A DNA stretch of 64,000 bases from Tubiluchus corallicola (taxonomy: Eukaryota > Priapulida > Priapulimorpha > Priapulimorphida > Tubiluchidae). Every line of letters starts with the position of its first letter. Within the stretch, counting starts at the first letter, position 1. Location of the stretch: positions 372,001 through 436,000 of the forward strand of contig JAQGDQ010002375.1 of the NCBI GenBank assembly GCA_030141605.1. The letters run 5' to 3'. The notes below the pieces were generated by a model. It had not been told where the DNA came from, made no database searches, and worked only from the letters and a program-made list of their open reading frames with translations. Positions 20,578 to 42,450 of the stretch are shown here, one piece after another. A program made the translations under genes and the position numbers.

Positions 20578-20639
20578 TCAGCTTCCCACTTTTTTCACAA
20601 TAAGATCTTGAAGAGCTTGTTGTTCTGTGGAATTCAATT
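20578..20639 (-). CDS. Candidate terminal exon of WDR7-like gene
   Basis: It follows an AG acceptor (GCACCAGGACAG) after a T-rich tract. The phase left by the 20709-20850 exon (one base carried over) is matched exactly, giving 19 residues beginning ELNSTEQQALQD and ending KKVGS before TGA. If real, the protein ends here without the usual C-terminal half. The exon is short and no AATAAA was seen just downstream, so it is tentative. Confidence 0.35.
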
Positions 20640-20708
20640 CTGTCCTGGTGCATCCGTAAAAACACAAGACAAGGTTTATATCACGTTATGGATAAAACAT
20701 TTTCCTAC

Positions 20709-41100: not shown

Positions 41101-42450
41101 GTTAAAACGACATACCACACAAATATATGAGCCATTTGTGTGGCAATGACTTTGATTTTCAAGGGCTCTGCAACATGTCACATAATTATTGTTAAGATGA
41201 CGAATGACAGAATAAGCTGCAGTAAAATTCTTTTTTCCATCGGATATTTTATTGTTGTTTATAAAATTATTGTTGACAGGATAATGTAAAACTATTTTGT
41301 TGTTGTATTTTGTAGTAACGTTCTATGAGCTTTATTTCCTTGTTTATAATTATGTCATATGTTGGTGAAATGAATGAATAAATTAAACTAAACCAATGTA
41401 CTTTACACGGTATATATGTTTTATGACTAAAGGAAGCAGGAAGCAGTATTGTAATGCGTAGAAAGATTTTACATTATTTTTATTTCAATGTAAGTGGTGT
41501 AAGGATGATCTAATAACAATTTAATATCAGTAATAACTGACCAATGCTGCAAATACGCCAAAGCTTCAAAAGTGGGTATGAACTGAAGCTTCACTTCGGC
41601 TTTCATTTGTTTGTGTCATTTCACTATGTCCAACATGAATAAAGCTACAAATTTCCACCCTGTGAGGCCCTTATTTACCTTACTGCCAGTTTTCTTAAAA
41701 GTGTTTAATTTGAAGCGGTTGTTGTCATGTATTCTTTAAGCAAATTTCTAATAGCGGGCATGTTACAATAGAGCGAACACATGGCCTACTTAGCATGTAA
41801 GTAAACAAAAAGTACAGAATTTTCAACTGACACATAAAGCATCACCTAAAGAAACTTTGCCGGAACGAATCAGCACAAAACTATATATTGTGTAATACGC
41901 CAAACAAAAAAGTATAGACCAATGCAGAATGTTGCTAGTAATTATGTTGATAGTCAATTTATTTATTATCAATAGTAATTCTTGCATGTAAAACTCCCTT
42001 AGGGGACATCAGTGAGCTAGCAATTGTTATAATACGGTGCGCTGCATATAGCCAAAACCTTTCTTACTGCTACAAGATAAATGAAACATTACTGATACTA
42101 TTTTTATGACTAATTGCTAAAGTAAACATAGATCTATATTAATAACACATAGCTAATTACTAAATATAGCAAATCTAAAACATTACATTCAATGTCAACT
42201 AAGAATTCGGACTCTAGTTCAAAACTATTACTTTTGGATTAAATCTATTTTAAGTATTTGAGCTTTATCTCATGCATGATCATTGCTTTACCTTCATATC
42301 TTTACCAATGTCCCAAAGGACAATCTGTCCATCATTGCTTCCAGTCACCACCATATCTTGGTTAATGGCCATCAGAATCGTGGAGACACAATGAGTGGGA
42401 GCTTTCCTCCCCCACAGTACCAGAGGAACAACCAGACTGCTGCCAGTCAT
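22234..42450 (-). CDS. WDR7 (rabconnectin-3 beta) N-terminal half, spliced gene
   Basis: The gene-level span covers 21 coding exons, each also listed separately. The phases of exons 1-20 join without a break to 994 codons, and exon 21 adds up to 293 more. The product has two blocks of WD40 repeats (about residues 15-350 and 415-600) followed by the conserved helical stretch (about 680-870), then a basic Ser-rich linker. Segments such as [27 protein letters not shown]-like [55 protein letters not shown] and [15 protein letters not shown] match WDR7 in order. Known family role: with DMXL1/2 (rabconnectin-3 alpha) it forms a cytosolic complex on endosomes and synaptic vesicles that promotes V-ATPase assembly and acidification. 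The vertebrate protein is about 1,490 residues. The C-terminal helical and WD repeats expected after the linker were not seen in this window. Introns are about 0.3-3.3 kb. Confidence 0.95.
24004..24249 (-). CDS. WDR7 exon 20 (linker, RKISAP motifs)
   Basis: This exon has 82 codons in phase 0 at both ends, between CTTGCAG and CAG/GTTACC. It encodes a basic Ser/Pro-rich region with two RKISAP copies (DRKISAPD and PRKISAPA), then an acidic stretch ([18 protein letters not shown]). It has no fold signature and is disordered linker. Confidence 0.8.
25114..25191 (-). CDS. WDR7 exon 19 (acidic/Ser linker)
   Basis: This exon has 26 codons in phase 0 at both ends, between TTTCAG and AAAG/GTATTT. It encodes [20 protein letters not shown] and a short tail. 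Too short for homology by itself, it is supported by splice sites, phase and position. Confidence 0.65.
25590..25680 (+). repeat. tRNA-like relic in WDR7 intron
   Basis: A box A-like TAGCTGAATGACTAAGGC resembles Ser/Leu tRNA heads (TAGCCGAGTGGTTAAGGC). The matching box B is poor (TTGGATGACCAG). Probably an old SINE head. Confidence 0.25.
25681..28500. other. Large WDR7 intron, no further exon seen
   Basis: This 2.8 kb of AT-rich intron shows no exon in phase. One 42-codon minus-strand fragment near 26.95-27.1 kb might be a retroelement scrap (see findings). Confidence 0.5.
28501..28604 (-). CDS. WDR7 exon 18
   Basis: The exon runs from TGATACAG to TTG/GTAAGC; it takes one base from exon 17 and ends in phase 0. 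It encodes GGFMSLLLP, matching the family's GGHMSLMLPG at the end of the helical block, then the basic KRKHRRHSR stretch. Confidence 0.85.
28970..29197 (-). CDS. WDR7 exon 17 (conserved helical segment)
   Basis: It begins after CTTGTAG and ends GCTG/GTAATT, taking one base in and carrying one base out. [20 protein letters not shown] and [19 protein letters not shown] closely match the WDR7 segment that follows the N-terminal WD repeats. This is one of the best family matches in the window. Confidence 0.93.
29676..29835 (-). CDS. WDR7 exon 16 (acidic/helical spacer)
   Basis: It spans TTTTCAG to CCAG/GTAAGA; phase 0 in, one base out. It encodes a Gln/Lys-rich stretch with [19 protein letters not shown], a probable amphipathic helix. 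In vertebrate WDR7 the same place has a charged VKETIKENIKEH helix. Confidence 0.85.
29905..30182. mobile_element. 278-bp hairpin (foldback/MITE-like) in WDR7 intron
   Basis: Two arms of about 134 and 132 bp are inverted copies of each other, separated by a 12-base loop (30039-30050). The arms match over TTTACTATTTCT, AGTGGAATTAATAGAAATTT, TTATGTAATTTTTCAAA and ACTAGCAC, with scattered mismatches and small gaps. The outer ends lie in the intron between exons 15 and 16. It has no coding capacity. It looks like a foldback DNA element or a miniature element. A long double-stranded RNA in the host pre-mRNA would be expected. Confidence 0.8.
30376..30446 (-). CDS. WDR7 exon 15
   Basis: It spans TATTTTAG to CAG/GTATAA and takes one base from exon 14 (GTT = V). 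It encodes [20 protein letters not shown], matching the family's QLLTEEASRPN...SPENL region. Ends in phase 0. Confidence 0.88.
30555..30612 (+). repeat. Possible tRNA-like relic (box B only)
   Basis: A box B-like CTGGTTCAAATCCAAG without a convincing box A. Low confidence. Confidence 0.2.
30880..31027 (-). CDS. WDR7 exon 14
   Basis: It spans TTTGCAG to ATTG/GTATGA; phase 0 in, one base out. It encodes [15 protein letters not shown] and then [17 protein letters not shown], almost identical to the family's DPDIHVLFFDVEALI. Confidence 0.92.
31112..31195 (+). repeat. tRNA-like relic in WDR7 intron
   Basis: A tRNA-like spacing of GTGTTCATAGCAGAGCGGAT and a box B-like TAGGTTCAATACTTA. It is likely another decayed SINE head. 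Confidence 0.3.
31718..31884 (-). CDS. WDR7 exon 13
   Basis: It spans TTTCAG to CAA/GTAGGT; takes one base from exon 12 and ends phase 0. It encodes [20 protein letters not shown] (compare family [20 protein letters not shown]) and an [19 protein letters not shown] helix. It leads out of the second WD block. Confidence 0.92.
32050..32245 (-). CDS. WDR7 exon 12 (WD repeats)
   Basis: It spans TTTGTAG to ACGG/GTAAAT. It encodes [35 protein letters not shown] and [12 protein letters not shown]. The two WD40 strands and order match WDR7 ([20 protein letters not shown] in the vertebrate form). Confidence 0.95.
32409..32530. repeat. Short imperfect duplication in intron
   Basis: The phrase CAACTGACTTAGCACATTC followed by ATATGCATTAAA occurs twice in direct order about 80 bp apart (near 32415 and 32495). 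Confidence 0.7.
33287..33507 (-). CDS. WDR7 exon 11 (WD repeats)
   Basis: It spans GATGTAG to AAT/GTACGA (a weak donor) and uses one base of exon 10. It encodes [20 protein letters not shown] and then a [17 protein letters not shown] strand and [12 protein letters not shown]. It is very close to WDR7. Confidence 0.95.
34161..34317 (-). CDS. WDR7 exon 10 (WD repeat)
   Basis: It spans TTTCTAG to AAAA/GTAAGT. It encodes [20 protein letters not shown] followed by [14 protein letters not shown], matching the family's [20 protein letters not shown]. Confidence 0.94.
35082..35164 (-). CDS. WDR7 exon 9
   Basis: It spans TTTTAG to TTG/GTAAGT; two bases complete the codon begun in exon 8. It encodes [19 protein letters not shown], matching the family's [20 protein letters not shown]. 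Confidence 0.9.
36028..36196 (-). CDS. WDR7 exon 8 (WD repeat)
   Basis: It spans TCTTAG to CCAG/GTGTGC. It encodes PPIMRFCCG, then [19 protein letters not shown], matching the family's LLIQGDSSGRLNIWNISD, and an acidic/Met-rich loop. Confidence 0.93.
37343..37445 (-). CDS. WDR7 exon 7
   Basis: It spans TTTCAG to ATT/GTAAGT; one base completes the codon of exon 6. It encodes [19 protein letters not shown] and [12 protein letters not shown]. It is the variable strand before exon 8 and is supported mainly by phase and splice sites. Confidence 0.85.
38082..38227 (-). CDS. WDR7 exon 6 (WD repeat)
   Basis: It spans TTTACCAG to GAA/GTACGA. It encodes [20 protein letters not shown], then [20 protein letters not shown], matching VFDAGDYSLLCS and [20 protein letters not shown] in the family. 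Confidence 0.95.
38656..38775 (-). CDS. WDR7 exon 5
   Basis: This exon has 40 codons, phase 0 at both ends, between TATGTAG and CAG/GTATTT. It encodes [20 protein letters not shown] and [10 protein letters not shown], matching [20 protein letters not shown] and LLVVCSKYWR. Confidence 0.93.
39242..39312 (-). CDS. WDR7 exon 4
   Basis: It spans TTTTGTAG to AAAG/GTATGT. It encodes [20 protein letters not shown], matching DTVVALSVTGILKVWIVT in the family. It is a complete WD strand set. Confidence 0.92.
39937..40184 (-). CDS. WDR7 exon 3 (WD repeats)
   Basis: It spans TTATCAG to CAAG/GTACTT. It encodes [38 protein letters not shown] and [15 protein letters not shown]. It is nearly collinear with WDR7 (GEMCLWDVSDGRCIEFTK; SPDWISSMSII). 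Confidence 0.95.
40973..41079 (-). CDS. WDR7 exon 2 (WD repeat)
   Basis: It spans TTTTGCAG to AATGG/GTTAGT. It encodes [20 protein letters not shown] and [12 protein letters not shown], matching NPRALLFGHTASITCLSKA and QYIVSASESG. Confidence 0.95.
42292..42450 (-). CDS. WDR7 exon 1 of coding region (start codon)
   Basis: The ATG at 42450 opens 53 codons ending AAG/GTAAAG in phase 0. [20 protein letters not shown] aligns with the start of WDR7 ([20 protein letters not shown]), which fixes the start. [18 protein letters not shown] is the first WD strand. Confidence 0.97.

What the first reader, a model, noticed from the sequence alone, without database searches (positions are those of the whole stretch)
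20578..42450. WDR7 gene appears to stop after its N-terminal half
Twenty exons chain in phase through the conserved helical block ([11 protein letters not shown]...PVSFG). The gene then enters a Ser/Arg-rich region and meets either a stop at 22234 or a phase-matched terminal exon at 20578. In known animals WDR7 continues for some 700 further residues with helical and WD repeats. I recognised none of them in the 20 kb beyond, where an unrelated receptor lies. The organism may have a split WDR7 (two genes), a genuine half protein, or a very long intron that I cannot see across.
Basis: partly seen in the sequence, partly recalled or inferred. Interest (0 to 1): 0.7.

Follow-up and report, generated by a model that had tools for sequence, protein, structure and literature searches.

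The report
Ordinary full-length WDR7 gene, long intron
The gene that seemed to stop halfway is most likely a normal, complete WDR7 gene whose second half lies just beyond the edge of the window, after one unusually long intron that also shelters an unrelated receptor gene on the opposite strand.

Summary
A WDR7 orthologue runs on the minus strand from an ATG at 42450, and no WDR7 C-terminal sequence was found in the window. But the C-terminal half is not missing. It lies on the same contig and strand, 25 kb beyond the window edge, at C1338:346735-331942. It is collinear, open to a stop at the expected end, and 53% identical over 513 columns to human WDR7 as I recalled it.

Window exon 20850-20709 (phase-1 donor CAG|GTAGGA) joins in phase to the acceptor at C1338:346735, whose exon (AVTTTHLISVIAVANTLM) matches recalled human [18 protein letters not shown]. 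The exon on the window side shows almost no homology, so its place rests on phase and splice sites. The intron would be 45,973 bases, against 165-3,309 for the 29 others measured. It holds an intronless 7TM receptor on the opposite strand.

The first C-half exon has no in-frame Met before its acceptor. The only other copy found is an identical redundant contig. So this is most likely one ordinary gene with a giant intron; fission in place is unlikely but cannot be excluded without cDNA.

The parts
31718..42450 (-). WDR7 exons e1-e13: 42450-42292, 41079-40973, 40184-39937, 39360-39242, 38775-38656, 38227-38082, 37445-37343, 36196-36028, 35164-35082, 34317-34161, 33507-33287, 32245-32050, 31884-31718. 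N-terminal WD-repeat region, 665 aa. Borders by splice score and phase; some are weakly supported.
   Evidence: tblastn with recalled human WDR7, splice chaining, phase check and translation, blastp 47% identity over 674 columns
30881..30958 (-). WDR7 e14 core ([26 protein letters not shown]); its exact borders and any exon between it and e15 are not resolved
   Evidence: 65% identity, E 8e-6
28501..29835 (-). WDR7 exons e15-e17: 29835-29676, 29197-28970 ([11 protein letters not shown]...[10 protein letters not shown]), 28604-28501 (GGFMSLLLP...)
   Evidence: 36 of 66 identical to recalled human 788-853
20709..25191 (-). Ser/Arg-rich linker exons e18 25191-25114, e19 24249-24004, e20 23115 to 22621 or 22315 (end ambiguous), e21 21954-21901, e22 20850-20709 (ends in phase 1 at CAG|GTAGGA)
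   Evidence: splice scores and phases; no clear homology to recalled human WDR7, so these rest on open frames, phase and splice sites
1..20708 (-). Window part of the proposed 45,973-base intron, which runs on to C1338:346736 outside the window. The next exons lie outside the window at C1338:346735-346627, 343863-343653, 343327-343192, 341206-341066, 340626-340510, 338994-338808, 338173-337953, 336258-336126, 335482-335383, 334667-334563, 332124-331942 (stop).
11043..12284 (+). Intronless rhodopsin-family 7TM receptor ORF (413 aa stop to stop) inside the proposed intron, opposite strand
   Evidence: PF00001 E 2.6e-20, 73.5 bits, cut-off 30.5

Best explanation
This is one complete WDR7 (rabconnectin-3 beta) gene of about 83 kb on the minus strand. 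It is transcribed from window 42450 through the 46 kb intron into exons at C1338:346735-331942, and encodes a full-length protein: N-terminal WD repeats, helical block, long Ser/Arg-rich linker, helical solenoid and C-terminal WD repeats. By orthology it acts with DMXL1/2 and ROGDI to assemble V-ATPase. Shown here: both halves are present, collinear and phase-compatible, and the modelled frame is open from e15 to the final stop. Inferred: that one transcript spans the intron, and that the protein has the usual V-ATPase assembly role.
For: The whole-genome search finds the C-half on the same contig and strand, downstream. The e22-e23 join is in phase 1, and all 11 junctions from e22 to e33 are in phase with no stop before the end. 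e17 ends in phase 0 and e23 starts in phase 1, so a connecting exon such as e22 (phase 0 to 1) is needed and is there. e23 alone matches recalled human 882-909, 57%, E 5.7e-4, so conserved sequence begins right at its acceptor. That acceptor scores 8.4, the highest of those scored for exons of the model (e31 was not scored); 2 of 2,667 AG sites in the stretch score 8.39 or more. The frame of e23 meets a stop ten codons upstream with no Met between. The 111 kb analysed has no N. [quoted passage not shown] A DMXL-type Rav1p_C match is present at C2237.
Against: No RNA evidence is at hand. The intron is about 14 times longer than the next longest of 30 measured in this gene. In a rough control read by eye on myosin-head exons (65 of 162 candidates scored), no gap between neighbouring matches of one gene reached 46 kb; the largest, about 15.7 kb and 12.9 kb, may hide a missed exon. 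On the e22 side of the join the alignment to recalled human WDR7 extends 11 residues with only the last Ser identical, so e22 rests on phase and splice sites; a phase match alone has a one-in-three chance. Codon scores of e21-e23 (0.09-0.11 bits per codon) are about the 95% null of 0.09 and do not separate them clearly from intron, nor from the 20578 exon (0.04). The second contig with the same arrangement is an identical copy, so it is not independent support. ROGDI was not found, but that search rang in no control either.
Confidence: 0.9

Rival explanations
1. WDR7 has been split in place into two neighbouring genes, an N-half ending near 22234 or 20578 and a C-half with its own promoter, separated by the receptor.
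For: The 46 kb spacing is an outlier and contains another gene. Stops exist at 22234 and 20578. e22 itself shows almost no homology to recalled human WDR7.
Against: e22 has a good in-phase donor to e23. There is no Met in the e23 frame between the upstream stop and the acceptor; the first Met inside e23 would cut 17 residues of a conserved stretch. Signals AATAAA/ATTAAA in the 1.5 kb after 22234 (3) and 20578 (4) are at or below the local rate of 2.7 per kb, but the C-half stop also has only 4, so this does not discriminate.
Confidence: 0.06
2. Besides the full-length form, a short WDR7 isoform ends in the long e20 frame at 22234 (or just after e22), comparable in layout to the paralogue WDR72, which is shorter than WDR7.
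For: The e20 frame stays open for 316 codons. Its part 22620-22312 scores 0.25 bits per codon, above the 95% null of 0.09 though below the null maximum of 0.44. No consensus donor follows it; the phase-0 candidate found by eye is ACT|GTTTCC at 22314. Human WDR72 is 1102 aa and 37% identical to WDR7 over its first 917 aa (PMC8264551, passages).
Against: The last 25 codons before 22234 score -0.28. A GTAAGA donor at 22620 (score 2.0) and the GTTTCC site both keep the frame into e21; other donor-like sites in e20 score similarly.
Confidence: 0.2
3. The 46 kb between the halves is an assembly misjoin and the true intron is short.
For: The assembly is redundant: C1338 coordinates match the reverse complement of the end of C1677, and every stretch compared is identical.
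Against: No N in 111 kb. Both contigs give the same spacing, though not independently.
Confidence: 0.04

Closest known systems
WDR7 / rabconnectin-3 beta (metazoan RAVE subunit)
   Same: Same order of parts from first Met to last residue: WD repeats, helical block, linker, solenoid, C-terminal WD repeats; 47% identity (N, 674 columns) and 53% (C, 513 columns) to recalled human WDR7
   Different: Much longer Ser/Arg-rich linker (475 aa from the start of e17 to the join in the longer model) and one 46 kb intron at the end of that linker
WDR72
   Same: Paralogue related to the first 917 residues of WDR7 (PMC8264551, passages)
   Different: Shorter (1102 aa). The gene here has a WDR7-type C-half on the same contig and strand, so it is not a WDR72-like half gene
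Nested genes in introns of host genes (e.g. 2mit in Drosophila timeless2, opposite strand; PMC3786989, start of abstract seen in the listing)
   Same: A protein-coding gene on the opposite strand inside a host intron
   Different: Here a 7TM receptor; the nesting rests on the single-gene model

Membership tests
WDR7 | N-terminal WD-repeat region homologous along its length | tested here: met
   665 aa, 47% identity over 674 columns to recalled human WDR7
WDR7 | Central helical block (SCLHAW...GLLKP..PVSFG..GG.MSLLLP) | tested here: met
   36 of 66 identical to recalled human 788-853
WDR7 | C-terminal helical half with C-terminal WD repeats, ending at the usual C terminus | tested here: met
   271 of 513 columns identical, stop after KYNI, in exons at C1338:346735-331942
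WDR7 | Both halves in one open reading frame | tested here: met
   At the DNA level, for the exons chosen: e15-e33 give 1,049 codons with one stop, at the end. The stretch e13-e15 around e14 was not resolved.
WDR7 | Both halves in one mRNA and protein | not testable with these tools
   No RNA or protein data
WDR7 | Forms a complex with DMXL1/2 and ROGDI | tested here: inconclusive
   Only presence of partners was sought: Rav1p_C found at C2237; Rogdi_lz rang nowhere, controls included
Split (two-gene) WDR7 | C-half has its own start upstream of its conserved sequence | tested here: inconclusive
   No in-frame Met before the e23 acceptor; a distant 5' exon cannot be excluded
   Found only downstream on C1338 and on its identical copy C1677; withheld stretches read N, and weak matches may be missed. 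A split in place would not need this feature.

The most novel reading that the evidence does not exclude
WDR7 has undergone a recent fission in place: a promoter arose in the 46 kb interval and the two halves are now made as separate proteins that reassemble as an mRAVE subunit, with the old splice sites e22/e23 surviving only as relics or as a minor spliced form.
Probability: 0.06. Interest if true: 0.55.

Novelty: new member of a known kind. Interest (0 to 1): 0.1.

Why it matters
It mainly matters as a correction. A window edge and one giant intron made a conserved V-ATPase assembly gene look truncated. Automatic annotation could make the same mistake and report two genes, so the proposed join (window 20709 to C1338:346735) is worth recording and testing.

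Tried and rejected
Searching the Protein Data Bank by sequence gave generic WD-repeat proteins for the N-half (the best 60 of 271 were shown) and nothing for the helical block. Pfam gave 0 families for the helical block and for the Ser/Arg-rich exon, so I used a human WDR7 sequence recalled from memory as the query. The second contig copy (C1677) was considered as an independent haplotype and rejected: 20,000 of 20,000 bases compared directly are identical, as are two overlapping loci of 3,189 and 3,225 bases, about 4,045 distinct. Of the open frames in the proposed intron (443 of 40 codons or more), I had scanned 8, picked by eye beforehand, with Pfam; only the receptor matched and the rest were not scanned. 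A search for papers holding both WDR7 and 'gene fission' found 0. A search for WDR7 with 14-3-3 found 64 papers by word start; I saw the listing of 8, mostly on WDR77 or other subjects, and read none. Confidence went from 0.92 to 0.90, and fission from 0.05 to 0.06, for that reason.

Full report
What was claimed.

The N-terminal half is real. tblastn of human WDR7 (recalled from memory, not fetched) against the window gives in-order minus-strand hits reaching query residue 841. Thirteen exons chain in phase from the ATG at 42450 to 31718. They translate to 665 aa that align with recalled human residues 1-649 at 47% identity over 674 columns. Borders were chosen by splice score and phase; some are weak. 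The e14 core and e15-e17 carry the helical block and GGFMSLLLP. Exons e18-e22 carry a Ser/Arg-rich linker. The e14 borders and the stretch between e14 and e15 were not resolved. The C-half gives nothing above chance in the window (two hits, E 4.0 and 5.9).

The C-terminal half is next door. The window is C1338:372001-436000 of a 343.5 Mb genome. A whole-genome search with the recalled C-half finds its conserved blocks at C1338:343778-331948 on the same minus strand, and at C1677:713910-725740 on the plus strand. The other hits (C570, C2308, C1874, C1172, C2050, C144, C1543, C1810; best E 6.6e-5) all lie in the WD-repeat part of the query, residue 349 onward, and are weaker than the main blocks. 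tblastn on the fetched region, with two more exons recognised by eye (e23 in the sequence, e31 in the frames), completes the half: exons e23-e33, 346735 to 331942, ending in a stop after KYNI where recalled human WDR7 ends with HRFMV. Identity is 271 of 513 columns.

The join. Exon e22 (window 20850-20709) ends ...W E L S G| in phase 1 with donor CAG|GTAGGA. Exon e23 begins tttcag|GT GCG GTG ACA in phase 1, which gives GGT GCG GTG = G A V. e23 matches recalled human [28 protein letters not shown] at 57%, E 5.7e-4. A blastp segment, E 1e-10, aligns model residues 492-591 with recalled human 873-1004 and so spans the join, but of its 11 residues on the e22 side only the last Ser is identical. 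e22 therefore rests on phase and splice sites rather than homology. e17, the last homologous exon before the linker, ends in phase 0, so a connecting exon like e22 (phase 0 to 1) is needed to reach e23. All 11 junctions from e22 to e33 are in phase, and the modelled frame is open from e15 to the final stop, 1,049 codons. Upstream of e23 its frame closes after ten codons with no Met. A stand-alone C-half would need an unseen 5' exon, or would lose AVTTTHLISVIAVANTL.

For an exon ending at the TGA at 20578, the in-phase acceptors score -1.8 (20624), -3.9 (20639), -6.5 and -8.4, against 8.4 for e23. The acceptor at 20644 scores 2.3 but in phase 1 reaches a TGA in its fourth codon; that short end is not excluded by score, since e22 and e24 themselves score 1.3 (frames read from the letters). 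The 20578 exon scores 0.04 bits per codon, not far from e21-e23 at 0.09-0.11. The frame that ends at 22234 loses coding character in its last 25 codons (-0.28, against +0.25 for 22620-22312). Its true 3' border is not settled: GTAAGA at 22620 and GTTTCC at 22314, both phase 0, are the candidates that I considered, and others in e20 score similarly. A short isoform is possible and would not remove the full-length form.

The long intron. It is 45,973 bases. The other 29 introns measured in this gene are 165-3,309 bases (the e13-e15 interval is left out). It holds an intronless plus-strand 7TM receptor at window 11043-12284. Of its open frames (443 of 40 codons or more on both strands), 8 picked by eye were scanned with Pfam and only the receptor matched. 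A rough control with myosin-head exons (65 of 162 candidates scored) showed no gap of 46 kb between neighbouring matches of one gene; the largest read by eye are 15.7 kb at C382 and 12.9 kb at C552, each possibly hiding an exon. The intron is therefore unusual here, which is why fission keeps a small probability.

Assembly. The 111 kb examined has no N. C1677 carries the same locus, but every stretch compared is the identical reverse complement: 20,000 of 20,000 bases and two overlapping loci of 3,189 and 3,225 bases. Coordinates of the two contigs sum to C1677's length plus one. It looks like redundant sequence, not an independent haplotype.

Function. In animals WDR7, DMXL1 or DMXL2, and ROGDI form mRAVE, which assembles V-ATPase (PMC12527914, abstract and passages). 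Rabconnectin-3 beta has an N-terminal WD40 region, a helical region and predicted WD40 repeats near its C terminus (PMC8264551, passages). This genome also has a Rav1p_C (DMXL-type) match at C2237:126691-127524. A ROGDI search found nothing, but it also rang in no control genome.

Verdict. This is most likely an ordinary, complete WDR7 orthologue with one giant intron. The apparent half gene is an effect of the window edge.

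Noticed in passing
window 28604-20709 (minus strand, linker exons e17-e22): In the longer linker model six R-x-x-S/T-x-P motifs occur (RKISAP twice, [24 protein letters not shown]), against a shuffle mean of 0.86; 4 of 20,000 shuffles reach six. The pattern was chosen after seeing the sequence. It resembles basophilic-kinase and 14-3-3 mode 1 sites (resemblance recalled, not tested).
   Followed up: partly
window 11043-12284, plus strand: Intronless rhodopsin-family 7TM receptor inside the proposed WDR7 intron (PF00001 E 2.6e-20).
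   Followed up: partly
C1338 (the window's contig) and C1677: C1338 appears to be the exact reverse complement of the end of C1677: every stretch compared is identical (20,000 bases, two overlapping loci), and coordinates sum to the length of C1677 plus one.
   Followed up: partly
C1667:17876-21847 and 56524-60490; C917:20400-23919 and 90660-94210: Matches with identical scores appear on opposite strands of one contig in mirrored order, as in a palindromic contig: WD40 on C1667, myosin exons on C917.
   Followed up: no
window 12878-13671 and 4050-4376: Minisatellites inside the proposed intron: 50-base unit, 15.9 copies, 94% matches; and 59-base unit, 5.5 copies, 88% matches.
   Followed up: no
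C1338:353838-353545, minus strand (L002 1838-1545): 98-aa frame that looks to me like a non-LTR reverse transcriptase fragment (GAPQGSVL; recalled resemblance). Pfam found nothing at E 0.01.
   Followed up: partly
C1338:361957-362398: Short stretch with several overlapping frames of high codon score on both strands; two of them gave no Pfam match.
   Followed up: partly
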